Shown here: one piece after another, positions 1 through 64,000 of the stretch
Numbering within the stretch: position 1 is the stretch's first letter
How the letters are laid out: each line of letters starts with the position of its first letter
DNA from: Planctomycetota bacterium
GTDB lineage: Bacteria; Planctomycetota; Phycisphaerae; Phycisphaerales; UBA1924
DNA length: 64,000 nucleotides
Reading direction: 5' to 3'
Assembly: GCA_020831805.1 (NCBI GenBank)
Contig: JAFIFX010000008.1
Location: 1-64,000, forward strand
Translations under genes and position numbers: made by a program
Notes under the pieces: generated by a model
What the model saw: the letters and a program-made list of their open reading frames with translations, nothing else
Database searches by the model: none
What the model was told of the DNA's origin: nothing

Positions 1-99
1 GGTTTTGTTGGGGGGGGGGGGGGTTCCCCGCCCCCGGATGGGGCGACCCCGTATTCGACCGTTCGCACGCGGGGGGGCTGTACCCCCGCCGCTCCAAAA

Positions 100-1380
100 A
101 TGCTGAATATGCCCACCATCCAACAAGCCGCCGCCAACCTCCCCCAAGGCCCCCTCACCGAGGCCGCGCTCGTCGAGCACATCCACCCCCTCTTCACCCG
201 CACCCTCGCCCGCACCGATGAGATCTACCTCGCCAACCACTCCCTCGGCCGCCCCCTCGACCAGACCGCCGACGATGTCCGCGAAGCCCTGGACCTCTGG
301 TACACCGACATGGACGCCGCCTGGGAAGCCTGGCTGGGCGAACGCGACGCCTACCGCGCCCGCATGGGCCGCCTGATCGGCCGCGCCGACCCGAAGGCCG
401 TCGTCCCCAAGACCTCGGCCGCCCAGGGCCTCCGCGCCGTCATCAACAGCCTGCCGCGCCGCACCCCGAACATCATCGCCACCCGCGGCGAGTTCGACTC
501 GATCGACTTCGTCCTCAAGGCCTACGCACACCGCGGCCGCGCCCGGCTGAGTTGGGTCGCCTGCGAACAGAACGCCCGCTTCGACGCCGACCGCATCATC
601 GAAGCCGTCAAGCCCGGCGCCGACCTCGTCGTCATCAGCCGCGTCTTCTTCGCCACCGGCCAGATCCTCGAGGACATCGAACGCGTCATCGCCCACGCCC
701 ATGACATCGGCGCCCGCGTCCTCGTCGACGCCTACCACTCCGCCGGCGTCCTGCCCGAGTCCATGGACGACCTCGGCTGCGACGCCATGATCGGCGGCAA
801 CTACAAGTACACCCGCGCCGGCGCCGGCGCCTGCTGGCTCGCCCTCGCCGACACCATGCTCCGCGACGCCCCCACCCCCGACCCCGAAGACCCCGCCCCG
901 ATCGACACCGGCTGGTTCGCCAAGGCCGAGCCCTTCGCCTACCACCGCACCGAGCTGCCCGAGTACGCCCCCCGCGCCGACGCCTGGCTCGAGGCCACCC
1001 CGCCCGTCCTGACCTACTACCAGGCCCGCACCGGCCTCGACCTGGCCCTGGCCCTCGGCGTCGACCGCCTCCGCGACTACTCCCTCCGCCAGCTCGCCTT
1101 CCTCCGCGACGCCCTCCACGAATCCGGCGTGACCACACGCCTGATCAACCCCCGACCCGACCAGCACGGCGCCTACCTGCTCATCCCCGTCGCCGACGGC
1201 AAGCAGGCCGTCACGAAACTCAAACACGCCGGCCTCAACACCGACGCCCGCCCCAGCCCCGCCGGCGCCAACAACACCAATCCCGAATGGTTCGTCCGCC
1301 TCTGCCCCGACATCCTCAACACCGAATCCGAACTGACCCAAGCCGCCCGGATCACCGCGCAGACGCTCGAAAGGCGGTAG
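100..1380 (+). CDS. Aminotransferase class V-fold PLP enzyme, kynureninase-like
   Basis: 426-aa ORF; 'GGNYKYTRAGAGACW' resembles the kynureninase PLP-lysine motif; 'VLVDAYHSAGVLP' PLP-binding Asp region. Confidence 0.75.
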   Translation: MLNMPTIQQAAANLPQGPLTEAALVEHIHPLFTRTLARTDEIYLANHSLGRPLDQTADDVREALDLWYTDMDAAWEAWLGERDAYRARMGRLIGRADPKAVVPKTSAAQGLRAVINSLPRRTPNIIATRGEFDSIDFVLKAYAHRGRARLSWVACEQNARFDADRIIEAVKPGADLVVISRVFFATGQILEDIERVIAHAHDIGARVLVDAYHSAGVLPESMDDLGCDAMIGGNYKYTRAGAGACWLALADTMLRDAPTPDPEDPAPIDTGWFAKAEPFAYHRTELPEYAPRADAWLEATPPVLTYYQARTGLDLALALGVDRLRDYSLRQLAFLRDALHESGVTTRLINPRPDQHGAYLLIPVADGKQAVTKLKHAGLNTDARPSPAGANNTNPEWFVRLCPDILNTESELTQAARITAQTLERR

Positions 1381-1383
1381 TCC

Positions 1384-2253
1384 TCACTTCGTCTCTTCGT
1401 CTTTCATTCGCGCTGGCTCTCCGCCATCCCTCGGTAAAACCACATAAAAATCCGACCCCACCCCCGGCGTCGTGTGCACCTCCAGCCGCCCCCCGTGCGC
1501 CTCGGCGATGCGTCGCGCCGTCGGCAGCCCCAGCCCCGTCCCGCCCGCGCGCGTCGTGTAGTACGGCCGGAAGATCTTCTCGACCGTCTCGGGCGACATC
1601 CCCGGCCCCGTGTCGATCACATGCAACCGCACCGACGCGACCCCGTCGTCCTCGCACGCCTCGCCGCGCAGGATCAGGTCCCGCGTCGTGATCGACGGGT
1701 GCTCCATCACCGACACCGCGTTGAGCATCAGGTTCAGCATCGCCTGCTTCACATGCGGGCCGTCGATCCGAGCCGAGACCGGCTCTCGGGGCGGCTCAAT
1801 CCGCAGCCGCACCCCCGACGCCCGTGCCTGCGGGTCGAAAAAGTCTCCCAGCTCTTCCAGCAGCATCCCGATGTCCAACGGCGCGATCGCCAGCCGCAGC
1901 TCCCCGGCGTACTCGAGAAAGTCGGACAGGATCCCCCGGAGCCGCTCCGTCTCCAGCTTGAGCGCCCCCACGCGACGCGTCAGCCGTCCCTTGTCCTGCT
2001 CGTCGAGCGACAGGTCCGCGATCGCTTCCTGCAGCAACTGCGCGTTCAGCCCGATCGTCGACAACGGGTTCTTGATCTCGTGCGCCAGCCCGCCCGTCAT
2101 CGAACCGATCTCCGCCAGCCGCTCGGCCGTCCGGGCGCGACGCTCGGCCACACGAACCCGCGCCACCGCCCGACGCACGATCACACGCGACGCGACCACC
2201 CCGGCGCCCGCGCCGATCAACAACCCGATCCCAAGCCCGGCCAGCCAACTCAT
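1384..2253 (-). CDS. Sensor histidine kinase
   Basis: H-box 'GGLAHEIKNPLSTI'; G-box 'GPGMSPETVEKIFRPYYTTRAGGTGLGLPTARRIAEAHGG'; N-terminal TM. Confidence 0.9.
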   Translation of the reverse strand: MSWLAGLGIGLLIGAGAGVVASRVIVRRAVARVRVAERRARTAERLAEIGSMTGGLAHEIKNPLSTIGLNAQLLQEAIADLSLDEQDKGRLTRRVGALKLETERLRGILSDFLEYAGELRLAIAPLDIGMLLEELGDFFDPQARASGVRLRIEPPREPVSARIDGPHVKQAMLNLMLNAVSVMEHPSITTRDLILRGEACEDDGVASVRLHVIDTGPGMSPETVEKIFRPYYTTRAGGTGLGLPTARRIAEAHGGRLEVHTTPGVGSDFYVVLPRDGGEPARMKDEETK

Positions 2254-3017: not shown

Positions 3018-3046
3018 CCACCCAGTCTAACCCAAAGCCCCCGCCC

Positions 3047-4552: not shown

Positions 4553-4649
4553 CGGTCAAATGGATCCGAGGGATGGTAGTCCCATCGGCCATAGAGCCTG
4601 CGGCAAACACCGGGATCAATGGAACCAGGCCGAAACGGACGCCCAGCGA

Positions 4650-4943: not shown

Positions 4944-5040
4944 GTGGCCCCCGATCCTGCGAACGAAACCCGACTCCCCACGAGCCTGGCGGCGCGACCA
5001 ATAACGCGTAGCCTACCAAATCCTGTCCGCGCGTCAAACA

Positions 5041-8159: not shown

Positions 8160-9430
<1,271 letters not shown>

Positions 9431-26831: not shown

Positions 26832-28949
26832 ATGGCCACCGACCTGACCAACATCCGCAACATCGGGATCTGCGCCCACATCGACGCGGGCAAAACGACC
26901 GTGACCGAGCGCATCCTGTTTTACACGGGCAAGAACTACAAGCTGGGCGAGGTGCACGAGGGCACGGCGACGATGGACTTCCTGCAGGAAGAGCAGGAGC
27001 GCGGCATCACGATCCAGTCGGCGGCGACGACCTGCCCGTGGACGCACAAGGGGCGCGAGTACAAGATCAACCTGATCGACACGCCGGGCCACGTGGACTT
27101 CACCATCGAGGTGGAGCGTTCGCTGCGCGTGCTGGACGGCGCGGTCGCGGTGTTCGACGGCAAGGAGGGCGTGGAGGCCCAGTCCGAGACGGTGTGGCGT
27201 CAGGCCGACCGGTACCGCGTGCCCCGCATGTGCTTCATCAACAAGATGGACAAGATGGGCGCGGACTTTGACTACTCGTTCAAGTCGATCAAGAAGCGGC
27301 TGGGCGCCAACGCGATCGCGGTGCAGATCCCGTGGGGCTCGGGCGACGACCTCAAGGGGATCATCGACCTGCTGGGGATGAAGGCGTACCGGTTCGAGCC
27401 GGACAGCTCGGGCGCGGTGGTGACCGAGATGGAGATCCCCGCCGAGGAGATGGAGCGGGTCCAGAAGTGGCGGCACGACCTGGTCGAGAGCGCCGTGACG
27501 CTCGACGACGAGCTGATGGGCGCGTACCTCGAGGACGAGGCGAGCGTCTCGGTGGAGGGCATCAAGAAGGCCCTGCGCAAGGGCACCATCACCCGCGAGT
27601 GCTACCCGGTCTTCTGCGGGTCGGCCCTGAAGAACATCGGCGTGCAGCGCCTGCTCGACGGCGTGATCGACTACCTGCCCAACCCCGAGGAGGTGCCGGA
27701 GATGGTCGGCACCGACCCGCGCGACCCGGAGAAGAAGCTTGTCCGCGACCACTCGGACGAGGCGCCCTTCAGCGCGCTGGTGTTCAAGGTCGTCTCGGAC
27801 ACGCACGGCGACCTGACCTACATGCGGATCTACTCGGGCAAGCTGATCAAGGGCACCCGGACGCTCAACCCCGGCAACAACAAGCGTGAGATCGCGTCGC
27901 GAATCTTCGAGATGCACGCGAAGGACCGCAAGGCCCTGGACGAGGCCGGCGCGGGCAACATCGTGGCGGTGGTCGGCATCAAGGACTCGATCACCGGGGA
28001 CACGCTGTGCGACCCGGATCAGCCCGTGATCCTGGAGCGGATGACCTTCCCCGAGCCGGTGATCTCGATGTCGATCGAGCCGAAGACGGCCGACGACAAG
28101 CGCAAGCTGTCCGAGGCGCTGGTGACGATCCGCCGCGAGGACCCGTCCTTCCGGTCCGAGTACAACGAGGAGACCGGGCAGACCATCATCTCGGGCATGG
28201 GCGAGCTGCACCTTGAGATCATCAAGAACAAGCTCGTCCGTGATATGAAGATCGGCGTCGAGGTCGGGCGCCCGCGGGTGTCCTACCGCGAGGCGATCGC
28301 CGGGCCGGCGAAGAACATCCGGGGCAAGTTCGTCAAGCAGACGGGCGGGCGCGGTCAGTTCGGCGACTGCACGATCAACATCATGCCGTTCACCAAGGAA
28401 GAGGCCGAGGCGGCCAAGCTCAACTTCAAGGACAACATCGCCTTCGAGAACAAGATCGTCGGCGGATCGGTGCCCAAGGAGTACATCCCCTCGATCGAGT
28501 ACGGCGTCCGTCAGACGGCGGTCGGCGGGATCACCGCGGGCTACCCGCTGATCAATGTCAAGGTTGAGCTGATCGACGGCTCGTACCACCCGGTCGACTC
28601 CTCGCAGGTCGCCTTCGAGCAGGCGGGGCGGCTGGCCCTCCGCGAGGCGGTGGCCAAGGCCGGCAGCGTGCTGCTCGAGCCGATCATGAAGGTGGTCGTG
28701 ACCACGCCGGAGGAGTACATGGGCAATGTGACCGGCGACCTGTCCAGCCGGCGCGGGATGATCCTCGACCAGGAGGACAAGGGCATGATCAAGGAGATCA
28801 CCGCCGAGGTGCCGCTGAGCGAGTTGTTCGGCTACACCACGGTGCTCCGCGGCCTGTCGCAGGGCCGGGCGGCCAACTCGATGGAGTTCCACGAGTACCG
28901 CGCGATGCCGGCGAACCTGCAGAAGGAAGTCATCGCCACCGGCGGCTGA
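26832..28949 (+). CDS. fusA: Elongation factor G
   Basis: '[24 protein letters not shown]', 'DTPGHVDF', '[10 protein letters not shown]', 'GGRGQFGDC'; start at [10 protein letters not shown]. Confidence 0.98.
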
Positions 28950-32946: not shown

Positions 32947-35823
32947 ATGCAGAGCGATCCACGGAATGCCCGCCCGGCCCGGCGGCTGTCGGCACCTGTT
33001 CAGTTTGCGTTCGTGCTGATCGCGGCCAGCGGCATGGCGGCGTCCGCGCAGAACGCCCCCGGCGCGGGCGGACAGATGAATGCGAACCAGCCGAACGCGA
33101 ACCAGGTCAACGCCGTCACGTCGGAAGCGATCGGCCGTGCGGAACGGCTCGTGATCCCGCTGAGCAATGCGGCGGGGATCCCGCTTCGGGTCGAGAACCC
33201 CAACGCCTTCTCGTCCCGCGCCTGGGACACGACCGTCGGTTCGATGGTGCCCGCCGAACGCCTCCCGCAGCATGTGGTGTACGGGACCGTGATCGTTGTG
33301 GCCGAGTCCCGGGCGGCCGTGGCCGCGGGCGTGGCGAAGCTGCAGGGCGACTTCCCCTGGCTTAACCCGAACATGATCGTCGAGTCGGAGAACATCGACG
33401 GGGTGTACACCATCGATGTCCGCACGGTCCGCAACGCGCTGCGGATCGCCGAACGCCTGCGCGTCGAGTCTGGGATCATCGACACCTCGCTGAATGTCGA
33501 GCGCCCCCACCAACGCCACGGCGGTGATCCGGCGCTGGTCGCCCAGTGGCATATTGAGAACACGCTCAACCCCGGGAACGACCATCGCATCGCGGAGGTC
33601 CACGCGGACGACATCACCGGCAAGGGCGTGGTCGTCGGGATCCTCGAGGCGTTCCGGGGCAGCTTCAACTCGCCGTACGACCCCGATGATCTGGCGGTGC
33701 CCGGCTTCGATTTTTCGTCGTCGGTTCACCCGGATCTGTTCGACAACTTCCGCCAGAATCTCTCGCAGCAGACCGACCCGTTCCAGGTGGAGGTCACGCA
33801 CGAGACCGCCGTGGCCGGGATCGTCGGCGCGGTCGCGAACAACGGGATCTTCGGCCGCGGCGTCGCCTTCGACGCCGGGCTGGCGGCGCTGCGCAACGGT
33901 AGTGCGATCGAGGCGGCCGACGCCTGGACGCACCAGCTCAACAGCATCCACATCATCAACAACTCGTGGGGACCCGTGAATATCACCTTCCCACCCGACA
34001 CAACCGGCCTTGTGCCGACCGGGCCGGATCCCGAAGATGTGAATGTCCGGCCGCCGGAGGTTTCCCGCTCGCAGCCGGCGACCATCCAGGAACTGGCGAT
34101 CCAGCAGGGGTTGAACCTCGGACGGAACAACAAGGGCCGGATCTATGTCTTCTCCGCCGGCAACGGGAACCACTTCCAGGGGTGGGACCGGTTCCTGATC
34201 GGCAATGCGGCGAGTCTGCCTCAGCACGGTTTCCTCGACATCGTCACGGACACCTTCGCACCCGGGAACCCGTTCGATTTCTTTGCTCTGGACGGGTCCG
34301 ACGACCTCAACTGGCGTTACTCGGGCATGATGGGCGACCGGACGGAGTACTGGCCGATCGCCACCAAGCCGAATGTGTTCGCGATCGGTGCGGTCGGCGA
34401 GTCGAACCAACTGGCCGGCTACTCCACGACCGGGACCGGGCTTTTCGCTTCGGCGTACTCGCTCGGCACGGTTCTGCCTCAGAACTTCGACCCCGTCTTC
34501 GGGTATGTCGGGGATCCGGTCGGTCGCGGCATCACCACGACGTATCAGATTGGAGAAGGGTCGGACCCCAACTGTCCAGGGTTCCTGCAGATCGACGGGC
34601 TGACCTGCTCGTTCAGCGGGACCAGCGCCGCGGCCCCGGTGGCAGCCGGGATCATGGCGTTGATGCTCGAAGCGAACCCGGATCTGACGACGCGCGACAT
34701 CAAGCACATCATCCAGCGGACCGCGATCCCGCTGAACTTCGATCCGGTCGGTTCGTACTGGACCACCGTCTTCGGGTTTGGCCAGACGGATCCGGACGCG
34801 ACGACCGAGCCGCCGACCTTCTGGCAGGCCAACTCGGCCGATGTGCTTCACAGCGATGAGTACGGATTCGGGCTGATCGACGCCGCCGCGGCGGTCGAGA
34901 AAGCCCGGACCTGGCCCGGGCTGCCGAAGCTCTTCGTGCTCGACTCGGGTCTGATCGAGATCGAGGATCTCACGATCCCGGACGCGGAGTTTATCGAAGT
35001 CGGCGCCGATCCGGACGAGACGGCGCCGAAGGTGTTCCATATCGTGCTCCCCGGGGAGAGGGTTTCCGCCGGGCGCGAGTTGCCCAGCGGTGTGACAATC
35101 AACGGTCTGGCCTGCGTGCGGGAGAACTTCCGCGTCGAAGCCGTCGAAGTGACGCTGACGATCTCGGGGGTCGGACCGGGCGATCTGTTCATCGTGCTGG
35201 AAAGCCCGCGCGGCAGCGTCTCGCCGCTGGCGATCCCGCGGGCCGATTCGTCCGAGTTCGCGTACACAAACTACACCTTTACAACCTACAAGCACTGGGG
35301 CGAGCTCTCCAGCGGCACCTGGAACATCTACTTCCAGGACTTCCGCCCCGACGAGGAGACCCCCATCGGCACCCTCCCGGATGAGGACGACCCCGGTGAG
35401 GAGCACATCACCTACTTCGGCCCGCTGGGTATGCCCGGCGCCAATGGACTGGGGTTCCCTTTCCCATCCCTCGATCACACCGAGAAAACCGTGGTCTCGG
35501 CGCGGCTGCGGATCTTCGGGACGGAAACCGATCTGGAGCCGAATCTCGCCTGCCCCCCGATTCTCACGAGTTGCCCCGGCGATCTGAACGGCGACGGCAT
35601 TATCGACACCGCGGACCTGCAGCTCTTCTTCGAGTGGTTCCTCGCCGGAGACCTGCGTGCCGATATGAACGGCGACGGTCAGCTGACCTTTGACGATGTG
35701 GTTGCTTATCGCGCCCTCTGGATTCCAGGCTTCTGCAACCGGTCCGGGCCGGTCAATCCCAGCGGCCGCCCGATCGGGCCTTCGAACCCCAGCCCGAACA
35801 ACCCGACTATCCGGCCGATCTGA
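32947..35823 (+). CDS. Exported S8 (subtilisin-like) serine peptidase with P-domain-like region and dockerin-like repeat
   Basis: 'THETAVAGIVGAVANN' His, 'FSGTSAAAPVAAGIMALMLEANPDLTTRDIKHI' Ser; 'DLNGDGIIDTADLQLFF...DMNGDGQLTFDDVVAY'. Confidence 0.88.
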   Translation: MQSDPRNARPARRLSAPVQFAFVLIAASGMAASAQNAPGAGGQMNANQPNANQVNAVTSEAIGRAERLVIPLSNAAGIPLRVENPNAFSSRAWDTTVGSMVPAERLPQHVVYGTVIVVAESRAAVAAGVAKLQGDFPWLNPNMIVESENIDGVYTIDVRTVRNALRIAERLRVESGIIDTSLNVERPHQRHGGDPALVAQWHIENTLNPGNDHRIAEVHADDITGKGVVVGILEAFRGSFNSPYDPDDLAVPGFDFSSSVHPDLFDNFRQNLSQQTDPFQVEVTHETAVAGIVGAVANNGIFGRGVAFDAGLAALRNGSAIEAADAWTHQLNSIHIINNSWGPVNITFPPDTTGLVPTGPDPEDVNVRPPEVSRSQPATIQELAIQQGLNLGRNNKGRIYVFSAGNGNHFQGWDRFLIGNAASLPQHGFLDIVTDTFAPGNPFDFFALDGSDDLNWRYSGMMGDRTEYWPIATKPNVFAIGAVGESNQLAGYSTTGTGLFASAYSLGTVLPQNFDPVFGYVGDPVGRGITTTYQIGEGSDPNCPGFLQIDGLTCSFSGTSAAAPVAAGIMALMLEANPDLTTRDIKHIIQRTAIPLNFDPVGSYWTTVFGFGQTDPDATTEPPTFWQANSADVLHSDEYGFGLIDAAAAVEKARTWPGLPKLFVLDSGLIEIEDLTIPDAEFIEVGADPDETAPKVFHIVLPGERVSAGRELPSGVTINGLACVRENFRVEAVEVTLTISGVGPGDLFIVLESPRGSVSPLAIPRADSSEFAYTNYTFTTYKHWGELSSGTWNIYFQDFRPDEETPIGTLPDEDDPGEEHITYFGPLGMPGANGLGFPFPSLDHTEKTVVSARLRIFGTETDLEPNLACPPILTSCPGDLNGDGIIDTADLQLFFEWFLAGDLRADMNGDGQLTFDDVVAYRALWIPGFCNRSGPVNPSGRPIGPSNPSPNNPTIRPI

Positions 35824-40072: not shown

Positions 40073-42685
40073 TTACGGGCAGCCGGCGTTGAAGGCCAGC
40101 AGGTAGTCGCGGAAATCGAAGAAGTTGAACAGGCCGTCGTTGTTGAAGTCTGCGGCTGGGTCCTGCGCCTGAAAGAGGGCGACAAAGAGGGCCAGGTCGA
40201 AGAAATCAAGCGAGCCGTCGTCGTTAAGATCGGCGGGGCAGGGGTTGGCGGGATAAGAGCAGTTCCACGCGGCGATGCGGCCGGCGGGAACGCCGCCGGC
40301 GTGGGTGAAGTCGCCGCCGGCGATGAGGGTGGGGCCCCATGATGCAAGAGCGAGAACCCAGTCGTTCGTACCGCGAAACTCCGCTGGTGAGATCAATGGA
40401 GACCAACGATGGCCGTCCCAACGGGCGATGCGATTCACAGTTCGGCCACCGACATGCGTAAAACTGCCTCCGAGATAGAGTGCGGGCCCTGTGCCATCAT
40501 CGTGAACAGCGAGGGAACGGACATGGCCCCCCGCAACGCCGGCAGCACAGACATCCGCAAGGGCCGACCAGTGGCTCCCATCCCAGCGAGCGACCCCTTT
40601 GGCTGGAATCGAGCCGGCCGTCGTGAAAGATCCACCAACATAGAGCGCCGGCCCCGATCCGTCATCAAAGACCGCCATCGCGAAGGCGGGACCATCGAGT
40701 CCCATCCCTTCCGGCCCGGTTAACGCAGACCACGCGTGCCCGTCCCATCGTGCGATCCGATTCACGACGACTCCGTCGATGGTCGTGAACTCACCGGCTG
40801 CGTACAAGTCACTGCCAAGTATCGCAAGGGCTCTTATGAAGTGCCCGGCTGGCCCGATCCCCTGCGGGCCGGTTAACGGGGTCCATGTCTCGCCATCCCA
40901 AGCCGCGACCCCAATGTTACCGATTCCCAGCCGGGTTACCTCTCCTGCCGCGTACAGCAATGGCTGATCGGAGTTCGTGGCGCTCGCCATGCTGTAGACG
41001 GTGTGGAAGATCAATCCGCTTGCGTCATCAAGAGATGCCCACTCACTGGCATCCCAGCGTGCGATTCCGGTGGCGGGCTGCCCACCGGCGGTGGCGAACT
41101 GACCACCGACATAGAGTGCCGTATCGCTTCCGCTATTGTGCAACTGCAACGCATAAACAACAGGTTGCGTCGCGCCGCCGAGACCGGCGCCGACCGGCTT
41201 CCACTCAACACCGTCCCACCGAGCGAGGCTTGAGGCCTGGACCCCACCCGCCTGCTGAAACAATCCTCCGGCGTACAGGCTCGGCGAATTTCCATCTTCG
41301 AATGCCTGAAGAGCAGAAACCCAAGACACCACGCCACCACCGACACCCGGGATTATCTGATCCCAGTCGCATTCATCCGAAGGCGGCGGGCAAACACGCC
41401 AGCGAGCGATGTGATTCGCTGGACGACCAGCCGCACTGGTAAAGCCTCCGCCGATGTAGAGCGCCGGACCATCACCATCATCGTAGGTTTGCACTACGGA
41501 GATGGATCCGCCGGATACTGCTGCATCCTCCGGATCGCCGAGGGGAATCCATGAAGCTCCATCCCATTTGGCGATGTTCTCCGCTGGGACACCACCTGCC
41601 GTGTCGAATAGGCCTGCGGCGTACAAAGCCGAACCGTTTCCGTCATCGAAGCTGTGCAACGAGAGCACTCGAGGGCTGCCCGCTCCCTGTATGCCCGTCC
41701 CCAGCGCGGACCAAATGCCGTTTTTCCATTTCGCGACCCTATTCGCACTTGATGCGCCGCCAGCGGCCGTGAAACTGCCGCCGGCGTAAAGAGCTTCACC
41801 AGACCCGTCATCATGCACATGGAGCGATGACACGACACCGTTCGTCCCCCACTCACCGCTTTGCCAAAGCGGGAACCACGCCGCACCGTTCCATCTCGCG
41901 ACGTACTGGGTCTGAACACTTCCCGCAAAGGTAAAGTTTCCGCCGATGTAGAGCGACTCGCCGTTTCCTGGATCATGAACGACCATGCAGTGGACTGTGT
42001 CATTGACCCCTACCCCGCCAAGGGTGAAGAGCGCGGACCACTCTTGACCATCCCACCTTGCAACGCGACCGACAGCGATGCCACCCGCGATCGTGAATCG
42101 CCCGCCGACATACAGCGCCGGCCCTCCCCCATCGTCATACACGGCCAATGCGTACGCGATGTTGTTCAGACCTACACCTTCCGGGCCGGCGAGCGCCGAC
42201 CATTCGTGACCGTCCCACTTGGCGATTCTGTTTACCGAGATACCTCCTGCGGTCAGGAAGTTGCCGGCCGCATAAAGGGCCGGCCCGTGGCCGTCGTCAA
42301 ACACTGCGAGGGCTGCGACCTCGTTGCTTCCTCCGATACCGACTCCATTGGGACCAACCAACGGGGACCACTCGGAACCATCCCAGCGCGCCACGCGATT
42401 GACGACCGTGCTCCCGGCTTGCGTGAAAAAGCCGGCAGCGTAAAGTGCAGGGCCGGAGCCGTCATCAAACACGACGAGATCGCGCAGCGCGCCATTGAAA
42501 CCCGGGTTGCCAATCGCGGGATCCCACGAAGTACGGCAGTCGACGCATTCGCCGAATGGGTCTGTGGAGGGGGCGGGAAGATCTGCAACTACAAGCGGAT
42601 CGGCTCCCGCGATCGGGCCGATCAAGAAGAGGCAAGCCGGGATCTGCCAGCGGATCCATCGACGGAGCAATCTGATACAAGACAT
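40073..42685 (-). CDS. Exported repeat protein (about 14 propeller-like repeats) with C-terminal dockerin-like tail
   Basis: Repeats 'LAVFDDGxGPALYAAGxFTxAGGxxVNRIAKWDGHxWSALxGP'; tail 'CPADLNDDGSLDFFDLALFVALFQAQDPAADFNNDGLFNFFDFRDYLLAFNAGCP'. Confidence 0.85.
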   Translation of the reverse strand: MSCIRLLRRWIRWQIPACLFLIGPIAGADPLVVADLPAPSTDPFGECVDCRTSWDPAIGNPGFNGALRDLVVFDDGSGPALYAAGFFTQAGSTVVNRVARWDGSEWSPLVGPNGVGIGGSNEVAALAVFDDGHGPALYAAGNFLTAGGISVNRIAKWDGHEWSALAGPEGVGLNNIAYALAVYDDGGGPALYVGGRFTIAGGIAVGRVARWDGQEWSALFTLGGVGVNDTVHCMVVHDPGNGESLYIGGNFTFAGSVQTQYVARWNGAAWFPLWQSGEWGTNGVVSSLHVHDDGSGEALYAGGSFTAAGGASSANRVAKWKNGIWSALGTGIQGAGSPRVLSLHSFDDGNGSALYAAGLFDTAGGVPAENIAKWDGASWIPLGDPEDAAVSGGSISVVQTYDDGDGPALYIGGGFTSAAGRPANHIARWRVCPPPSDECDWDQIIPGVGGGVVSWVSALQAFEDGNSPSLYAGGLFQQAGGVQASSLARWDGVEWKPVGAGLGGATQPVVYALQLHNSGSDTALYVGGQFATAGGQPATGIARWDASEWASLDDASGLIFHTVYSMASATNSDQPLLYAAGEVTRLGIGNIGVAAWDGETWTPLTGPQGIGPAGHFIRALAILGSDLYAAGEFTTIDGVVVNRIARWDGHAWSALTGPEGMGLDGPAFAMAVFDDGSGPALYVGGSFTTAGSIPAKGVARWDGSHWSALADVCAAGVAGGHVRSLAVHDDGTGPALYLGGSFTHVGGRTVNRIARWDGHRWSPLISPAEFRGTNDWVLALASWGPTLIAGGDFTHAGGVPAGRIAAWNCSYPANPCPADLNDDGSLDFFDLALFVALFQAQDPAADFNNDGLFNFFDFRDYLLAFNAGCP

Positions 42686-44083: not shown

Positions 44084-45738
44084 GGTGTTTGCTCCTTGGC
44101 GGCGCCGGCACGACGGGCGTAATCGGCCAGGGGCTGGTGGGCGGCCTGGGAGGTCGCCAGACGCAGCGTGAGCTGGAAGTGGCGCACGGCGCGGTCGTCG
44201 GCGAGTGTGTCCCGGGTCGTGGACCCGAGGTTGATCGCCGTGACGAGCGGGGATGCCTGCAGTGCCTGGACCACCTCGGTCAGGGCCGCCGCGGCTGAGG
44301 TGTCGTCCGTGCCGACGGTCGAGCCCTTGAGACGGATCTCGGGGCCGGTGGCGGTGACCTGGGCGTCGATCTCGTCGAAGCGGGCGTGCTCGGACGCATT
44401 CTCGGCGATCAGGGCGAGCACGGCGGGCCAGTCCGCGCTCGGGCCGGCGCTCTCGGTGACGCGGAGCGCGACGCGGCCGGCGGCGCCTGCCAGGCGGTTG
44501 ATCCGTTCGCGCGCTTCCTCCTCGCGGCTGAGCGCGGCCAGCGTCGTGGCGTGCTGGGCGAAACGGGGTTCGAGTTCGCGGTTCTGGCCGGTGATGTGGA
44601 CATACTCGGCGCCGAGCAGGGCGGCCGCGCCGATTGCGCCAGCGGCGAGGCACCGGCGGAACGTGTCGGACTGCTTCTGCTCCATCACGGCGTGTGGGAT
44701 CAGTTCGGCGGTGTCGGTCTCGGCGCGGACCCAGGCGTACTCGAAGGTCCCGGGAGCGAAGGGTTTGAGAACGCCCGCTCCATCGCACCCGGGCGCCACG
44801 CGGATGTGCATGTTGACGGTGTCGGTGACGGCGGAAGCGAGATAGGGGATCGCGGCGCCGGGCCCGTCGAGGATGAGGGTCGAGGGCTGCTGATCGGCCG
44901 GTATGCCGAAGCGCAGTGTCTGCTTGATCTCGACGCAGAAACGCTGGAGGACCGGCGCGACCATGGGAAGGATGCGGGCGCGGACCTCGGGGCTGATCTC
45001 GGTGGATTTGAAGGGCAGGCCGTGGTCGAAGAGCATGCGCTCGCCGAGGGCCTGGTCGGCCTCCGCGTCATCCGGGCGGATCGCGCGCTGGAAGACATCG
45101 GAGAGGAGTCGGTGGCCGAACTCGAAGGCGCGGACCAGCCGCAGGCCGTCGCGGGATCCGACGGCGATGACCGACCAGCCCGGGCCGATGCAGCAGCAGG
45201 CGGTCGTTTCGTTCTCGGCCGTGAGGACCCGATCGGCGGCGATGCGAACGATGGCGGCGGCCTCGGGGATCAGCCGCTCGACGCGCGTGCCGCAGCGGGT
45301 GAGCCATGCGTAGAGCTTGTTGGTATCGTCCTCTCGGTCCGCGAGTGCGAGGACGGTCCATGTGCCGGGCTTTTCCGCGGTGGGACCGAGGATCGCGGCA
45401 TCGGCGATGACGATCGAACCGCCGGATTCGCGGATTTTCACGGTCGCCGCCCGCCGGGCGTCGTCGCGTGAGCCGGCGATTTCGTGGGACTGGACGATGG
45501 CGTTTCTGGCGTGGTACAACAGCGTGATGCGCGGCTGGGATCGTCCGGGCGAGAGCCTGGACAGCAGTTGGCGCAGCGGGCGATCGAGCGGGACCAGGCC
45601 CTGCTCCCAGGCCTGCTCCCACGCGGTGGGGTCGGTCTCGATCTGCTCGGCCCGGACGATACGCCCGGCGCGGACGACCGCGCCGCGGATGCGGTCCGGT
45701 GTTAGGGTGAGCACGATGCGGGTTGGTGTGCCGATCAT
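44080..45738 (-). CDS. GspL-like protein (PilM-like plus PilN-like parts in one chain)
   Basis: Actin-like N-terminal half then TM 'CLAAGAIGAAALLGAEYVHI' and PilN-like C-terminal half; operon position. Confidence 0.65.
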   Translation of the reverse strand: MIGTPTRIVLTLTPDRIRGAVVRAGRIVRAEQIETDPTAWEQAWEQGLVPLDRPLRQLLSRLSPGRSQPRITLLYHARNAIVQSHEIAGSRDDARRAATVKIRESGGSIVIADAAILGPTAEKPGTWTVLALADREDDTNKLYAWLTRCGTRVERLIPEAAAIVRIAADRVLTAENETTACCCIGPGWSVIAVGSRDGLRLVRAFEFGHRLLSDVFQRAIRPDDAEADQALGERMLFDHGLPFKSTEISPEVRARILPMVAPVLQRFCVEIKQTLRFGIPADQQPSTLILDGPGAAIPYLASAVTDTVNMHIRVAPGCDGAGVLKPFAPGTFEYAWVRAETDTAELIPHAVMEQKQSDTFRRCLAAGAIGAAALLGAEYVHITGQNRELEPRFAQHATTLAALSREEEARERINRLAGAAGRVALRVTESAGPSADWPAVLALIAENASEHARFDEIDAQVTATGPEIRLKGSTVGTDDTSAAAALTEVVQALQASPLVTAINLGSTTRDTLADDRAVRHFQLTLRLATSQAAHQPLADYARRAGAAKEQTP

Positions 45739-49382: not shown

Positions 49383-51074
49383 TCAGGCGGCGGCACGCGG
49401 GGACGCCGCTTGCCGCTCGGTGATCTCGATGGTGGCGTGGAGCTTGTTCAGTTCGTCGATGCTCGTGATGCCGAGTCTGGCCTTGTCGACGCCGTCCTCC
49501 AGCATCGAGCGCGTTCCCTCGGCTCTGGCCAGCGCGGCGATCTCCGAAGTGGATGCCCCACGCTCGATCAGGTCACGCACACCGTCGGTGGCCCGGAGCA
49601 TCTCGTAGACCCCGATCCGGCCGCGGTACCCGGTGTTCATGCAGTTCGGGCAGCCCGTTCCGCGGATGAAGCCCTTCTCGTCCGGCGCGATCCCCAGCGA
49701 GCGGAGCTGGACGGGGTCGGGGTCGGGGTCGTCTGTTTTACGGCAGTGCTCGCAGACCTTGCGGACAAGCCGCTGGGCGATCACGCCGAGCAGGGCGTTG
49801 TTGATCGCAAAGTTGGGCACGCCGAACTCGCGGAGCCGGGCGACGGCCCCCACCGCGTCATTGGTGTGCAGGGTTGAGAAGACCAAGTGCCCGGTCAGCG
49901 CGGCCTGCGCGGCGATCTTGGCGGTCTCTTCATCCCGGATCTCGCCGATGAGCAGCACATCGGGGTCCTGGCGCAGCAGCGACCGGAGGGCGCTGGCGAA
50001 TGTCATGCCGATGGCGGGGTTGACCTGGATCTGGCGGATCATCGGCATCCGGATCTCGACCGGGTCCTCGACGGTGAGGATGTTCCGCTCCGGCGAGTTG
50101 ATCCGCCCGATCGCGGTGTAGAGGGTGGTGGTCTTGCCCGATCCCGTCGGGCCGGTCGTGAGGATCAGGCCGTGGGGCTTCCTGATGATCTCGGCGAAAT
50201 CGTGGGCGATGTCGGCCGGCATGCCGAGTTGCTCGACGGAGTTGACCGCGGCGCCCGGGCGCAGCAGGCGGAGCACGGCGTTCTCGCCGTGGATCGTGGG
50301 AACGATCGAAAGACGGACATCGATGTGCGTGCTCTTGTACCGGAATCGGAACTTGCCGTCCTGCGGGCGGCGGGTCTGGGTCACATCGAGCTGGGCCATG
50401 ACCTTGAGGCGCTGGACGAGGCCCTCGTGCATGGTGATCGCCGGGCCCTGCTGGGGCTGGAGAACGCCATCGATGCGGTAGCGGAGGTGAAGCAACCGCT
50501 CGTCGGGGTTGATGTGGATGTCCGACGCGCCGGCCTCGGCGGCGGTGTAGAGGATCTGGTTGACCGCGGCGACAACGGGCTCGTCCGACGCCTCCACACG
50601 CTCGTCGCCGTCGTCGGCCTCGGCCTGGGTATTGCCCGAGTCGAGCGTGTAGGCGCGGACGATCAGCGTGCGCAACAGCTCGGAATCGCACACCACCGGG
50701 TCGATCTGCCGCCGGAGGGTCTGCTGGAGCAGGTCCATGGCCTGCAGGTCCAGCGGGTCCTCCATGGCCACCGTGGCGATGTCGCCGAGCACATAGATCG
50801 GGAAGGCGACCAGCCGCTCGGCCATGGCCTTGGGCAGACGTCTGGAGTTGCGGATGTCCGTGTCGGCCAGTGTCAGATCGACAAATGGGTACTCACAGAT
50901 GATCGCCTTGGCGATCGCCAGGTCCCGGGTCGAGACCTTCTGGAGGCGGATGACGGCTTCCTCGAGCGTCACCGCGTGCTCGTTGGCGTAGCGGCGGAGG
51001 TCCTCGGCGCTCTGCGCGGAGAGCTTGCCGTCCTCGATCAAAGCCTGGATGACGAACTCGCTGGTATCAAGCAC
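49383..51074 (-). CDS. Type II secretion/type IV pilus assembly ATPase, GspE/PulE/PilB family
   Basis: 'GLILTTGPTGSGKTTTLYTAI', 'RQDPDVLLIGEIRDEETAKIAAQAALTGHLVFSTLHTNDA', tetra-Cys 'CEHCRK...CPNC'. Confidence 0.97.
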   Translation of the reverse strand: MLDTSEFVIQALIEDGKLSAQSAEDLRRYANEHAVTLEEAVIRLQKVSTRDLAIAKAIICEYPFVDLTLADTDIRNSRRLPKAMAERLVAFPIYVLGDIATVAMEDPLDLQAMDLLQQTLRRQIDPVVCDSELLRTLIVRAYTLDSGNTQAEADDGDERVEASDEPVVAAVNQILYTAAEAGASDIHINPDERLLHLRYRIDGVLQPQQGPAITMHEGLVQRLKVMAQLDVTQTRRPQDGKFRFRYKSTHIDVRLSIVPTIHGENAVLRLLRPGAAVNSVEQLGMPADIAHDFAEIIRKPHGLILTTGPTGSGKTTTLYTAIGRINSPERNILTVEDPVEIRMPMIRQIQVNPAIGMTFASALRSLLRQDPDVLLIGEIRDEETAKIAAQAALTGHLVFSTLHTNDAVGAVARLREFGVPNFAINNALLGVIAQRLVRKVCEHCRKTDDPDPDPVQLRSLGIAPDEKGFIRGTGCPNCMNTGYRGRIGVYEMLRATDGVRDLIERGASTSEIAALARAEGTRSMLEDGVDKARLGITSIDELNKLHATIEITERQAASPRAAA

Positions 51075-51900: not shown

Positions 51901-52740
51901 ATGGCCAACCCACTCGTGCAGGACCTGATTGAATCGGGCATCCACTTCGGCCAGCGGTCGAGCGGCTGGAACCCGAAGATGGGGCCGTACATCTACGGCA
52001 AGCGCAACGGGATCCACATCATCGACATCAAGGAGACCGTCAAGGGTCTCCTGCTCGCCAAGAAGCTGATCACCCGCACCGTGTCGCAGGGCAAGGATGT
52101 CTGCTTCGTGGGGACCAAGCGCCAGGCCAAGGGCGTGATCGAGCAGCGCGTGAGCGATGTCAAGATGCATTATGTCACCGAGCGTTGGCTCGGCGGCACG
52201 CTGACCAACTTCCGCACCATCCGCACCCGCCTGAAGCGCCTGGAGGAGCTCGAGGCCATCGAGGCCAACGACAACTTCCAGAGCTACTCCAAGAAGATGG
52301 AGAGCCAGCTGCGGCGTGAGATGAAGAAGATCCGGCGCAACCTCGACGGCATCCGCAACATGCACAAGATGCCCGGCGTGATGGTGGCCATCGATGTCAA
52401 CCGCGAGATCAACGCCCTGCGTGAGGCCCGCAAGCTCGGCATCCCCACCGTGTGCCTGATCGACACCGACGGCGACCCCGAACTGGTCGATGTGGCCATC
52501 CCCGGCAACGACGACTCGATGCGGGCCATCGATGTGATCGTCCGCGAGTTGTGCAAGGCGATCGCCGACGGCAAGCAGATGCGGGTCGAGTCGGGCGAGG
52601 GTTCCGAGGAGGCCTCCGGCGACTCGCAGGGCGGGCCGCGTCGCAGCCGCCGGGCCCAGTTCCGCGCCGATGACGCCACGCGGTCCGAGCCCGGTTCCGA
52701 CGCCGGGGTCGATGCCGAGCCGGCCAAGGCCGAGTCCTGA
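51901..52740 (+). CDS. rpsB: 30S ribosomal protein S2
   Basis: 'LIESGIHFGQRSSGWNPKMGPYIYGKRNGIHIIDI', 'RWLGGTLTNFRTI'. Confidence 0.98.
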   Translation: MANPLVQDLIESGIHFGQRSSGWNPKMGPYIYGKRNGIHIIDIKETVKGLLLAKKLITRTVSQGKDVCFVGTKRQAKGVIEQRVSDVKMHYVTERWLGGTLTNFRTIRTRLKRLEELEAIEANDNFQSYSKKMESQLRREMKKIRRNLDGIRNMHKMPGVMVAIDVNREINALREARKLGIPTVCLIDTDGDPELVDVAIPGNDDSMRAIDVIVRELCKAIADGKQMRVESGEGSEEASGDSQGGPRRSRRAQFRADDATRSEPGSDAGVDAEPAKAES

Positions 52741-52812: not shown

Positions 52813-53637
52813 ATGGCTGAGATCAACGCCAAGGATGTGATGAGCCTTCGGAACAAAACCGGGCTCGCCATGATGGCCTGCAAGAAGGCCCTGATCGAGG
52901 CGGGCGGGGATATCGAGAAGGCCGAGGACCTGCTCCGCAAGGAGCTCAAGGGCAAGATGGAGACCAAGATGGACCGCGCCGCCGGCGAGGGACGCATCGA
53001 GGTCGCCGTCTCGGGCGATGGTTCGGCCGCCACCATCGTCGAGCTGCGGGCCGAGACCGACTTCACCGCCAAGAACGACAAGTTCGTCGCCGCGACCAAG
53101 AAGATCGCCGAACTGGCCCTGGCCATCCCCGCCGGCTCCACCGAGCCCAGCAGCGAGATGCAGGCCATCATCGACGACCTGCGCATCAGCACCGGCGAGA
53201 ACATCTCGATCGGACGCATCGAGAAACTCGAGTCCAATGGCGGCAAGACCGTCTACGGCAAGTATGTCCACCACGACGGCAAGACCGGCGTGCTGATCGA
53301 GGCCGAGGGCGACCTGGGCGAGGAGACCCTCCGCCAGATCGCCATGCATGTCACCGCGGCCTTCCCGCGCCCGCTGGGCCTGACCCCGGATGACATCCCC
53401 GGCGACATGGTCGAGAAGGAGCGCAAGTTCCGGATCGAGCAGGCGATGGAGAGCGGCAAGCCGCAGGAGATTGCCGAGAAAATGGTCGAGGGCGGCATGC
53501 GCAAGTTCTTCGCCGAGGTCGCGCTGCTCGAGCAGGCCTTCGTGATGGATCCCTCCAAGTCGATCAAGGACATCGTCGGTTCCGGCGGGAACCTCAGGAA
53601 GTTCCGCCGCTGGGAAGTCGGCGAAGTCGCCGGCTGA
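52813..53637 (+). CDS. tsf: Elongation factor Ts
   Basis: 'VMSLRNKTGLAMMACKKALIEAGGDIEKAEDLLRK', 'ETDFTAKND'. Confidence 0.97.
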   Translation: MAEINAKDVMSLRNKTGLAMMACKKALIEAGGDIEKAEDLLRKELKGKMETKMDRAAGEGRIEVAVSGDGSAATIVELRAETDFTAKNDKFVAATKKIAELALAIPAGSTEPSSEMQAIIDDLRISTGENISIGRIEKLESNGGKTVYGKYVHHDGKTGVLIEAEGDLGEETLRQIAMHVTAAFPRPLGLTPDDIPGDMVEKERKFRIEQAMESGKPQEIAEKMVEGGMRKFFAEVALLEQAFVMDPSKSIKDIVGSGGNLRKFRRWEVGEVAG

Positions 53638-54630: not shown

Positions 54631-56208
54631 TCAGCCCACATGCTTCGGGTCGAACGCGTCCTGAAGCGCGTCGGTGAGCACGTTGAAGGCCAGGACGAGC
54701 ACGAACATGAAAAAGGTGGCCGCGCCGATCTGCCAGAAAAACCCGGCGACGACCTCGGGCTGGGAATGGTCGACCATGATGCCCCAACTGGCGCCTTCCT
54801 TGATTCCCAGGCCCAGAAAGGTCAGGACCACCTCGCCCTTGATCGCGGCGATGAAGAGCAGGGACAGGTTGATGAAGATCAGGTGGGCCGTGTTGGGCAG
54901 GATGTGACGCAGGAGGATGCGGCCGCTGCCCGCCCCGATGGAGTTGGCGGCCTGGACGAAGTCGAGCTGCTTGAGCTTGAGGGCCTCGCCGCGGGTCACG
55001 CGGCACGGGCCGATCCAGTAGGTCAGGGCGAATGCGGCGTAGAGCGGGATCAGGGTTCGCTCCAGCTCCGTGCCACGGAACATGAACGCCAGCACGATCA
55101 GCAGCACCAGTTCGGGGATCGAGCTGAAGGTCGAGTAGAGCCAGATGACGGCGTGGTCCACGATCCCGCCAATGTAGCCCGCCGCGGCCCCGATCAGGCT
55201 GCCGAAACCAACCGCGAACAGCGATACAATGACGCCGACCTGGATGGCGACCTTGCCCGAGTAGATCGCCCGGATGAAGATCGATCGGCCCTGGCGATCG
55301 GTGCCGAGCAGCAGCCGCAGGCGGTACAGCACCCCCGGGACACCGCTCGGCATCGGCATGAGCAGTTCGATGTACGGCTCGATGTCGTCGAGCTTGGCGT
55401 CGATCTCGCGGTCGATGCCTTCCAGACGCTCGGCGATGGCCTCCTTGAGTGTCCGGAGCAACTCGGCGTCGTAAAGGGGATCCGGCAACGGCTCGGCGAG
55501 GATCGCTTCGGCCTGGGCGAAAAAATCCTCCGGGTCCAGCGCGGCCAGCGGCGAGTCCGCCGGGACCTGCGGGATCATGTCCTCGAGCTGAAAGCCGACC
55601 TCCTCCAGCGACAGCGAGATCTCCTCCAGCAGGATCAGGACATCCGCGTCCTCGCCTCGGTCCGCGTAGAGGCGTGCGTACGCATCGACCTGCCTGGCGG
55701 CCAGGCGGGTCGCCAGCAGGTTCGCCCGGAGGCGGCGGAGCGAGGACTGCGACTCGAACTCGGCCAGGGCCCGGGTGTGGATGGCCCGCAGCTCGGCCGG
55801 GTCCAGGTCGGCGACACGGCGCTCGGCCAGGGTCAGCCGGGCGAAGTGCTCGTCGAAGTCGCGGCCGACCGGATCGATGCGGTCATAGGAGTCGAGGGTG
55901 GTGCCGATGCGGTTGAGGTGAAAGGCGGTCTGCTCGGTCCGCGCCGTCGGGTGCGCCTTGATCCCGAAACCGGGCAGGTTGGCGGCGCCGACGCGTTCGA
56001 GGGTTCGTTCGGGAAGCAGCGCCCCGAGGACCGGACGCTCGCGGAGGTCGTACGCCCCGCTCCATTGACCGACTTTGGCCACCCCCTCCATGGCCAGGAT
56101 CCACACGAACAACAGCAGGTACACCGAGACGACCGCCATCGCCACCACCGCGAGGCGGTTGCCGAAGAGCTTGCGGAGCGAGGGGGATTCGTTGATGCGG
56201 GCGATCAC
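54631..56208 (-). CDS. Oligopeptide ABC transporter permease, OppC-like, with a large insertion
   Basis: 'LLLGTDRQGRSIFIRAIYSGKVAIQVG', 'PCRVTRGEALKLKQLDFVQAANSIGAG' EAA loop. Confidence 0.9.
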   Translation of the reverse strand: MIARINESPSLRKLFGNRLAVVAMAVVSVYLLLFVWILAMEGVAKVGQWSGAYDLRERPVLGALLPERTLERVGAANLPGFGIKAHPTARTEQTAFHLNRIGTTLDSYDRIDPVGRDFDEHFARLTLAERRVADLDPAELRAIHTRALAEFESQSSLRRLRANLLATRLAARQVDAYARLYADRGEDADVLILLEEISLSLEEVGFQLEDMIPQVPADSPLAALDPEDFFAQAEAILAEPLPDPLYDAELLRTLKEAIAERLEGIDREIDAKLDDIEPYIELLMPMPSGVPGVLYRLRLLLGTDRQGRSIFIRAIYSGKVAIQVGVIVSLFAVGFGSLIGAAAGYIGGIVDHAVIWLYSTFSSIPELVLLIVLAFMFRGTELERTLIPLYAAFALTYWIGPCRVTRGEALKLKQLDFVQAANSIGAGSGRILLRHILPNTAHLIFINLSLLFIAAIKGEVVLTFLGLGIKEGASWGIMVDHSQPEVVAGFFWQIGAATFFMFVLVLAFNVLTDALQDAFDPKHVG

Positions 56209-61084: not shown

Positions 61085-61090
61085 CCCTGC

Positions 61091-61843
61091 TCAGCGATCG
61101 GCGATGATCGCCCAGATCCGACGCTGCGCATCGTTGTTGTCCGGGCTCAACCCGACGGACTCCGACAGCGGCTCGTCGAACGCGCTCCGCGGGGTCCACC
61201 GCACGCCCGCGTCGGTGAACAGGGTGTACACACCATCGACATGGCGCGAATCGAGCCGATCGGGCAGGCCCACACCGTCGCCCACCAGCGGCCCGAGCGG
61301 GAGATCGGACAGCCGGACCATGCTCGGCGGGAACTCGGCGAACCCCCAGTCGACAAACGGGGCGGACGCGTAGCCGCCCTCGACATTCACCCCCGGCGTG
61401 CCGGGAGGCCAAGGGTTGTCCGGCGTGTTGAACCGCTGCCCCTCGGCGGACTCGGACGGGCAGTACAGCGCCTCCGGGGCTTCCAGCAGCCCGGCCCGTT
61501 CCAGGCGGCCGAAAAGCACGAAGAGGTTGCTGGTGCCCGAATACACCATGGTGTTCCACTGCAACCGCCCGCCGCGGTAGCCCAGGGGCACGCGGTCCTG
61601 CCAGTCGTTAGCGTAGATCGCGAGGGTCTGGTGCAGGGACCGGAGATTGGCCTGACACTTGACCCGCCGGGCCGAGTCGCGGGCCGAGGAGATCGCGGGC
61701 AGCAGGATCCCGATCAGCACCGCGATGATGGCGATGACCACCAGCAACTCGATCAGCGTGAACCCCCCCGCGCGGGGGGCGGGCCGGCTCGGCCGTTCAT
61801 GCGAGATGCAAGGGGAGCGGATCAAGCGGGTTTCCTTGGTCAC
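61091..61843 (-). CDS. Prepilin-type N-terminal methylation domain protein (DUF1559/pseudopilin-like)
   Basis: '[47 protein letters not shown]'; no ATG close upstream, GTG at 61843 proposed. Confidence 0.8.
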
Positions 61844-61993
61844 CGAGGAGGGATTCAATAGGCCCGTCCCGGGCGACAGCCCGGGCCGTGGCCGACGGAT
61901 CGGCACGGCGAACGCCGAGAACGGACCATAGCCCGGCGCGTCCACCAGCACGCAAAAGCCCTGCCTCCCCCCGACCACCCGGAGCCACCACCC

Positions 61994-63562
61994 ATGCTGC
62001 TCACCACCGCGGCCCTCGCGGGCGCCCTCGCCATGCTGCCGCTCGCCGACCCCGCCCCCCACGCGATCAGCCTGGAAGCCATCGGGACCATCCGCCTCGG
62101 CCCGTTCATGAGCGAGGCCGCCGAGATCGTCGTGCATGACGCGGCGTCGCAGCGGCTGTTCGTCGTCAACGGCCACACCAACGCGATCGACATCCTCTCG
62201 ATCGCGGACCCGACCACGCCCGAACGCATCGGCTCGATCGACCTGCGCCCGTTCGGCGGCGCGGTCAACTCCGTCGACACGCACTCCGGGCTGGTCGCCA
62301 CGGCGATCAACGGGTTCGAGCGGACCGACCCCGGACGCATGGTGCTGTTCGACACCGACGGCCGGTTCGTGAGCCTGGTTCAGGTGGGCGCGATGCCCGA
62401 CATGGTGATCTTCACCCCCGACGGACGCCGGATCCTGACCGCGGATGAGGGCGAGCCGTCCCACGATTACGCGATCGACCCGGAGGGAACGGTCAGCATT
62501 ATCGACCTGCCCGAGGATCCGCGTCGCCTCGGCCAGCACCATGTCCGAACCGCCGACTTCCGACGCTTCAACGACGCTGACCTCGACCCGAGCATCCGCG
62601 TCTTCGGCCCCGGGGCGACCGTCGCGCAGGACTTCGAGCCCGAGTACATCACCGTCACCCCGGATTCATCCACGGCCTATGTGACACTCCAGGAAAACAA
62701 CGCCATCGCCGTGGTCGACATCGGCTCGGCGACCGTCACCGGCCTGATCCCGCTCGGCTTCAAGGACCATTCGTTGCCGGGCAACGGCTTCGACGCGTCC
62801 GACCGCAACCCTCGGATCCGGATCCGGCCCTGGCCCGTCTTCGGGATGTACCAGCCGGACACCATCAAGGGCTACACCGCGGCCGACGGCCTGTTCTATC
62901 TGGTGACCGCCGACGAGGGGGACACACGCAACTACGCCGGTTTCAGCGAGATCGCCCGTGTCCGCGACCTGCCCCTCTGCCCGGAGGCCTTCCCCAACGC
63001 ACACGACCTCCAGGCCCCGGAGAACCTCGGACGCCTCCAGGTCACCACCACCCTCGGCCGCAACGAGGACGGGCTGTTCGAACGCCTGTACGCGTTCGGG
63101 ACCCGGGGCTTCAGCATCCGCACCCCGGACGGCACGATCGTGTTCGAGTCCGGCGACGAGTTCGAACGCATCACCGCCGAACGCGCCCCGGAAGCGTTCA
63201 ACACCGACAGCCAGCCCGACGCGCCCTCCAAGAACCGCTCCGACAACCGCGGCCCGGAGCCCGAGGCCCTGGCCATCGGCCAGGTCGGCGACCGGATCTA
63301 CGCCTTCATCGGCCTTGAGCGAACCGGCGGCATCATGATCTATGACATCACCGTGCCCGCCGAGTCCGTGTTCGTCGACTACTGGACCAACCGCGTCATG
63401 CCGGCCGGGAGCGGTTCAGAAGAAGCGGGCGACCTCGGGCCGGAATGCCTTCTGTTCATCCCGGCCGAGCACAGCCCGACGGGCGGGGCACTGCTGGTCT
63501 CGGCCAACGAGATCTCGAGCACGGTGACGATCCACCGGATCGTGCCGCGCACAAAAGAATGA
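61994..63562 (+). CDS. Choice-of-anchor I-like exported protein (propeller-like)
   Basis: '[24 protein letters not shown]', '[30 protein letters not shown]', '[30 protein letters not shown]'. Confidence 0.82.
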
Positions 63563-63620
63563 CCGGGCCGCCCGAGGGAAGCGGGGCGACCCGGTCAAGA
63601 GACAGTCGATCACGGATGAC

Positions 63621-64000
63621 TTACGGGCAACCTGCGTTGAACAGATCCAGGTAGATCCCGATATCGAAGAAGTTGAACTGGCCGTCCTGGTTCAGGTCGG
63701 CCGCGGGGTCCTGGGCGTTGAACAACGCGAGGTAGGCCGCCAGATCGAAGAAGTTCAGCTCGCCGAAGGGCTCGGCGAGATCGGCCGAGCTGCACGGCTC
63801 CGGCCCGGAGGCGGGCACAATCGCCACATCGCCGAGCTGCACGGGCGGGTAGTTGAACCCGTCACCGCCGGGGATCAGGGGGCCGAAGGAATCGCCGAGA
63901 AAGTATCCCGAGCCGTCCATCGCGAAGGTGTTGAGCTGGCTGAAGTAGTTCGGAAAAACCCCGCGCCCGACCGCCGCGTGATAGCCTGTGTCGTCGCGCG
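63621..64000 (-). CDS. C-terminal part of an exported dockerin-like-tail protein (truncated by window end)
   Basis: Frame stays open to 64000; tail 'LNFFDLAAYLALFNAQDPAADLNQDGQFNFFDIGIYLDLFNAGCP'. Confidence 0.8.
   Translation of the reverse strand, partial: RDDTGYHAAVGRGVFPNYFSQLNTFAMDGSGYFLGDSFGPLIPGGDGFNYPPVQLGDVAIVPASGPEPCSSADLAEPFGELNFFDLAAYLALFNAQDPAADLNQDGQFNFFDIGIYLDLFNAGCP

What the first reader, a model, noticed from the sequence alone, without database searches (positions are those of the whole stretch)
1..64000. Near absence of the tetranucleotide ACGT across the whole window
Reading the + strand end to end (ACGT is its own reverse complement, so both strands are covered) I found only about six copies: 27091, 33118, 34540, 41901, 50838 and 54680. 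ACGA, ACGC and ACGG are abundant, and at this visibly high GC a random expectation would be well over a hundred. The effect shapes synonymous codon choice. Genes that otherwise favour C-ending codons switch to GAT/AAT/CAT/TAT before a Val GTN codon, for example GTCGATGTCCTC at 8269, ATCGATGTCAAC at 52390, GTCGATGTGGCC at 52487, AAGTATGTCCAC at 53262 and ATGCATGTCACC at 53341. Inference: avoidance of a restriction site, or deamination of a methylated cytosine in ACGT, which would give the observed ATGT/ACAT. No matching methylase or endonuclease gene is in the window.
Basis: partly seen in the sequence, partly recalled or inferred. Interest (0 to 1): 0.75.

Follow-up and report, generated by a model that had tools for sequence, protein, structure and literature searches.

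The report
Bacteria and phages purged of ACGT
One lineage of uncultured planctomycete bacteria, and a group of phages that probably infect it, have removed almost every ACGT from their DNA, most likely because an enzyme in these cells cuts DNA at ACGT; the enzyme itself was not found.

Summary
The window holds 7 ACGT against 165 expected (Markov), and 6 in genes against 117.5 ± 6.2 after synonymous codon shuffling. In 1.24 Mb sampled from the 3.36 Mb genome (G000) the ratio is 0.07. It is a clade trait in Phycisphaerales: 14 of 17 rows of one clade are depleted, at GC 0.55-0.69, and two nested members have regained ACGT. Strict members come close to total loss: SSACGTSS occurs 2 and 1 times per genome against 609 and 696 for the control word. 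A group of phage contigs has 1 ACGT against 326 expected, while phages one step more distant are normal.

The deamination idea fails: all three codon phases are emptied, including A|CGT (1 vs 54), where C-to-T is not synonymous; the replaced base depends on the frame; non-coding DNA is depleted too. This is selection against the word in DNA, best explained by an ACGT-specific restriction activity. A conserved ACGT in the 16S gene survives in strict genomes, so the site is tolerated, probably by methylation. No cognate enzyme was identified. ACGT O/E 0.05 is on record for H. pylori; the near-total loss here, mirrored in phages, is the unusual part.

The parts
1..64000 (.). whole window: ACGT almost absent (7 copies; palindromic, so both strands)
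   Evidence: 7 vs 165.5 expected; 6 in genes vs 117.5 +/- 6.2 after codon shuffle
27091..27094 (.). residual ACGT site
33118..33121 (.). residual ACGT site
34540..34543 (.). residual ACGT site
41901..41904 (.). residual ACGT site, outside the genes called in my script
50838..50841 (.). residual ACGT site
54680..54683 (.). residual ACGT site
52390..52401 (.). example junction ATCGATGTCAAC (GAT|GTC in place of GAC|GTC)
   Evidence: coordinate; genome statistic: GAT 95% before GTN
8268..8279 (.). example junction GTCGATGTCCTC

Best explanation
The lineage has carried for a long time an ACGT-specific restriction activity, most simply an orthodox Type II restriction-modification (R-M) system. Every ACGT in the chromosome is a liability when modification is incomplete, so selection replaced ACGT by whichever neighbouring word costs least in each frame. 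Phages that infect these cells lost the same word. Where the activity was lost (UBA6054, HXMU1422-10) ACGT returned. Shown: word-specific selection at DNA level, clade inheritance, nested reversals, a phage group with the same purge, survival of a conserved rRNA site. Inferred: that the agent is a restriction endonuclease, that ACGT is methylated in these cells, and that the phages infect this clade. In G000 itself the activity may now be leaky or recently lost, because phage-like islands with many ACGT sites are present.
For: Word-specific: in strict genomes ACGT is 6/421 (0.014) and the next lowest tetramer is 0.39. Three codon phases all emptied: G000 31/616, 130/1552, 11/106; strict clade 1/81, 1/197, 1/54; non-coding 39/491 and 2/43.5. 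The base that changes depends on frame: C in NAC|GTN, G in ACG|T, A or T in A|CGT. Clade trait: 14 of 17 rows depleted, 0 of 500 label shuffles as clustered, with L161 and L162 as nested reversals (genome-wide SSACGTSS 1840/1611 and 1664/2267). Strict genomes G092 2/609 and G108 1/696. Phages: L382 and L396-L401, 1/326, with terminase, lambda-type portal and capsid genes, while terminase relatives at 81% identity or less have ratio about 1; their other tetramer usage ranks with the depleted clade (p 7e-7 for the main group). The ACGT in GGATGACGTCAAGTC (16S) is kept in G040, G107, G108, G110. Precedent: H. pylori ACGT O/E 0.05, HpyCH4IV site (PMC3849833); orthodox Type II sites are the ones avoided (PMC4687349).
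Against: No cognate methyltransferase or endonuclease was identified. C5 methylases are absent from G000, G040, G092 and most depleted genomes. The three conserved orphan N4/N6 methylases occur in non-depleted relatives and in reverted genomes. PF02384 and PF07669 hits are patchy. Rusinov et al. report that elimination below 0.1 is less frequent in prokaryotic genomes than in non-temperate phages, and ascribe it to methylation weakening selection (PMC6286503), so near-total loss is more than a standard R-M system is expected to give. The phage-host link rests on tetramer signature only.
Confidence: 0.72

Rival explanations
1. Restriction without self-methylation: an ACGT-cutting nuclease that needs no partner methylase because the host genome has been emptied of the word. 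Self is marked by absence of the word, not by a chemical mark.
For: Host purge reaches phage-like levels (2 and 1 SSACGTSS per genome); no clade-specific methylase was identified in four families; G092 and G108 carry so few sites that no recently acquired ACGT-bearing DNA of size can be present (inference).
Against: A conserved ACGT stays in the 16S rRNA gene of strict genomes and would be cut unless protected, repaired or cut only under induction. How such a state would be reached without a methylase phase is unclear. Families not searched (e.g. PF02086) could hold the methylase.
Confidence: 0.13
2. Mutational loss: a methylated C in ACGT (m5C or m4C) mutates to T at a high rate, so ACGT decays to ATGT/ACAT.
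For: NAC|GTN goes to NAT|GTN; ATGT and ACAT are among the commonest counterparts where reverted L162 or L161 has ACGT; in phages ACG|T goes partly to ACA|T (0.41 vs 0.12).
Against: A|CGT, where the change would be non-synonymous, is emptied too (11/106 in G000; 1/54 strict). ACG|T mostly becomes ACC. No C5 methylase in most depleted genomes.
Confidence: 0.04
3. A selective constraint unrelated to restriction, such as a DNA-binding protein, a structural property of ACGT or an RNA-cleaving toxin acting on ACGU.
For: No restriction enzyme identified. 16S rRNA keeps ACGU, which a structured RNA might protect.
Against: Non-coding DNA is depleted (2/43.5 strict); a phage group has the same purge while close relatives do not; palindromic word and two nested losses fit a losable enzyme.
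Confidence: 0.08
4. Ghost in G000: the system existed in the ancestor and is already lost in the window's own genome, which now only carries the trace. This is a sub-case of the main explanation, not exclusive with it.
For: G000 (155 SSACGTSS) and sister L160/G101 (299) are less strict than other members; phage-like islands carry ACGT; the neighbouring L161 has already lost avoidance.
Against: The host background is still at 0.04-0.07.
Confidence: 0.35

Closest known systems
Orthodox Type II R-M site avoidance (Rusinov et al. 2015, PMC4687349)
   Same: Palindromic tetramer, genome-wide, persists across a lineage, can remain as a trace after loss of the system
   Different: No cognate system identified here; depletion down to a few copies per genome
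Helicobacter pylori ACGT avoidance (HpyCH4IV site; PMC3849833)
   Same: Same word, O/E 0.05 in whole genomes
   Different: A clade of Phycisphaerales spanning several genera at GC 0.55-0.69; the strictest members are about ten times stricter; no C5 methylase in most of them
Recognition-site elimination in phages (Rusinov et al. 2018, PMC6286503)
   Same: Phage contigs L382 and L396-L401 lack the word (1/326)
   Different: Here the presumed host genomes show elimination of similar strength
CpG-type decay by deamination of methylated cytosine
   Same: A CG-containing word is lost; many losses are C to T
   Different: Loss is independent of codon phase and of which base can change

Membership tests
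Orthodox Type II R-M site avoidance | short palindromic word specifically under-represented | tested here: met
   ACGT lowest of 256 tetramers in window, G000 sample, strict genomes and phages
Orthodox Type II R-M site avoidance | depletion caused by selection, not by one mutation type | tested here: met
   all codon phases and non-coding DNA depleted
Orthodox Type II R-M site avoidance | cognate methyltransferase encoded in the genome | tested here: inconclusive
   PF00145, PF01555, PF02384, PF07669 searched; none is shared by the depleted and missing from reverted genomes; genomes are incomplete and PF02086 was not searched
Orthodox Type II R-M site avoidance | cognate endonuclease encoded in the genome | not tested
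Orthodox Type II R-M site avoidance | ACGT methylated in host DNA | not testable with these tools
   needs long-read or bisulfite data
Recognition-site elimination in phages of the host | phages of the host lack the word | tested here: inconclusive
   phages lacking ACGT found; host link by tetramer signature only
Deamination-driven word decay | loss confined to sites where C-to-T is tolerated | tested here: not met
   A|CGT emptied 1/54 strict, 11/106 G000

The most novel reading that the evidence does not exclude
The strict members defend themselves with an ACGT-cutting nuclease that has no dedicated methylase: the genome is self because it lacks the word. The few remaining sites, such as the one in the 16S rRNA gene, are repaired or spared.
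Probability: 0.13. Interest if true: 0.9.

Novelty: new variant of a known kind. Interest (0 to 1): 0.62.

Why it matters
It is a natural experiment on how far restriction can reshape genomes: one word is driven to near zero in a set of related bacteria across a wide GC range and in a phage group, and is regained in two nested lineages. Sister pairs (UBA1910 vs HXMU1422-10; J019 and G000 vs UBA6054) make the responsible gene findable by gene-content difference. If the cells cut ACGT without methylating it, self recognition by absence of a word would be a new principle. In practice, DNA sent into these uncultured bacteria should be free of ACGT.

Tried and rejected
Orphan methylases L002, L003 and L005 as cause: conserved in non-depleted genomes of the order and kept in reverted genomes. 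C5 methylases: not shared by the depleted clade; the related ones in L218-L220 (G105, G104, G101) are 56-81% identical, and in L218 the gene sits next to a dnaX-like gene with no nuclease seen. Neighbourhood of L002 in 14 loci, and of L003 and L005: housekeeping or secreted-protein genes, no nuclease seen. Methylase motif scan of 1.24 Mb of G000: only an RsmD-like protein. PF02384 and PF07669: patchy. The low ratio in viral locus L394 is a general loss of CG-containing words, so it was dropped. Papers on ACGT methylation in planctomycetes: none found.

Full report
Observation. The window has 7 ACGT (one more than reported, at 44661) where a maximal-order Markov model expects 165.5; no other tetramer is as extreme. 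With proteins and codon usage of each gene held fixed, 500 shuffles give 117.5 ± 6.2 copies in genes against 6 observed. The quoted junction codons exist, with starts shifted by 0-3 bases.

Extent in the genome. The window lies in a 3.36 Mb, 30-contig genome (G000, 93% complete). In 1.24 Mb sampled, ACGT is 222 vs 3182 expected. In 20 stretches from the starts of other contigs, 19 have ratios of 0.00-0.10; the exception is C7:1-20000, 14/51, which also holds an HsdM-like gene. Two loci with phage-type genes are little or only partly depleted: L001 5/13 and L004 8/11. Genome-wide, SSACGTSS occurs 155 times against 2097 for the control word SSTGCASS.

Extent among relatives. In some 60 genomes of the order most ratios are 0.65-1.3. 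A scan with a conserved orphan methylase brought 54 named loci, mostly Phycisphaerales MAGs; of these L160, L163-L171 are at 0.00-0.07 and L172 at 0.30. In a tree of that methylase 14 depleted rows fall in one clade of 17; the label needs 4 changes, against a mean of 13.2 in shuffles. L161 (UBA6054, 0.77), next to G000 and L160, and L162 (HXMU1422-10, 0.68), sister to L166 (UBA1910, 0.00), look like losses of the avoidance; G044 (0.77) is basal and could be either. Genome-wide counts agree: G092 2/609, G108 1/696, G040 23/1701, G107 60/1583, against G102 1840/1611, G103 1664/2267 and G044 1141/1850. MAG contamination could account for part of the residual counts. The tree is of a single gene.

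Mutation or selection. Expected counts per codon phase were computed from codon usage. Strict clade: ACG|T 1/81, NAC|GTN 1/197, A|CGT 1/54; non-coding 2/43.5. G000: 31/616, 130/1552, 11/106; non-coding 39/491. Threonine before T shifts to ACC (0.82 vs 0.58) and little to ACA (0.10 vs 0.04); arginine after xxA drops CGT (0.01 vs 0.09) for CGC. Different bases are changed in different frames, which one mutational process cannot do. For Asp, Asn, His and Tyr before GTN the shift corresponds to a scaled selection of roughly 4.5-5 per site (my calculation). Genes were called by a simple codon-usage script, so phase counts carry some error.

Phages. Viral contigs related to the phage-type methylase of G000 have a median ratio of 1.01, but L382 is 0/50 and L307 4/48. 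Terminase relatives of L382 at 90-92% identity are also empty (L396-L401), one at 82% is at 0.19, and those listed at 81% or less are at 0.88-1.10. Together L382 and L396-L401 have 1 ACGT vs 326 expected. They carry terminase, portal, capsid and replication genes. Tetramers without ACG or CGT place the main phage group nearest to depleted genomes; this compares genomes of this order only and is suggestive, not proof, of host range. L397 alone does not rank as clearly. L307 carries a serine integrase, so it is probably temperate.

Protected or not. The conserved 16S segment reads GGATGACGTCAAGTCCTCATG in G040, G107, G108 and G110; that this segment is 16S rRNA is from established knowledge of the gene. 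ACGT is thus tolerated at a site that cannot easily change, which favours methylation or another form of protection over an unprotected, constantly active nuclease.

Search for the enzyme. C5 methylases: none in G000, G040, G092 and most depleted genomes. Beta-class: the types shared by the well-sampled members are orphans that also exist in non-depleted and reverted genomes. Other families are patchy. The enzyme could be in a family not searched, in a missing part of the MAGs, or one of the orphans may be the methylase while only the nuclease is clade-specific. I cannot decide between these.

Judgement. Known kind of phenomenon (restriction-site avoidance; PMC4687349, PMC6286503; same word in H. 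pylori, PMC3849833), at an unusual strength in host genomes and with a mirrored phage group. I rate it as a new variant and not as a new category.

Noticed in passing
L001:17-2316 (G000 contig C4): A Type II R-M pair beside a phage-type gene: nuclease with weak similarity to EcoT38I (7e8r, E 7.6e-05) and methylase of the M.PvuII family (1boo, E 1.7e-93). GAGCTC and CAGCTG are both under-represented in G000 (0.28 and 0.27).
   Followed up: partly
L056 (G002), L058 (G037), L061 (G051), L064 (G087): Partial ACGT depletion (0.09-0.34) in another family (f2) of the order, probably independent; G002, G048 and G051 share a C5 methylase family (58-64% identity), though the G048 locus itself is not depleted.
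   Followed up: partly
L519, L520 (viral contigs): Two viral loci with GTAC 0/30 and ACGT 11/68: another case of word avoidance, with two words at once.
   Followed up: no
L397:6995-8152 and L254:2830-3798: A Fic-domain protein in an ACGT-free phage is 73% identical over 323 aa to a protein coded in G000 contig C7.
   Followed up: no
G092, G101, G107, G108, G110, G111: A protein of about 900-1,035 aa with a weak Eco57I match, not seen in reverted G102 and G103 nor in G044; its sequence could not be fetched.
   Followed up: no
viral locus L394: Low-GC contig with ACGT, ACGC, CCGG and GCGC all at zero, a general loss of CG-containing words.
   Followed up: no
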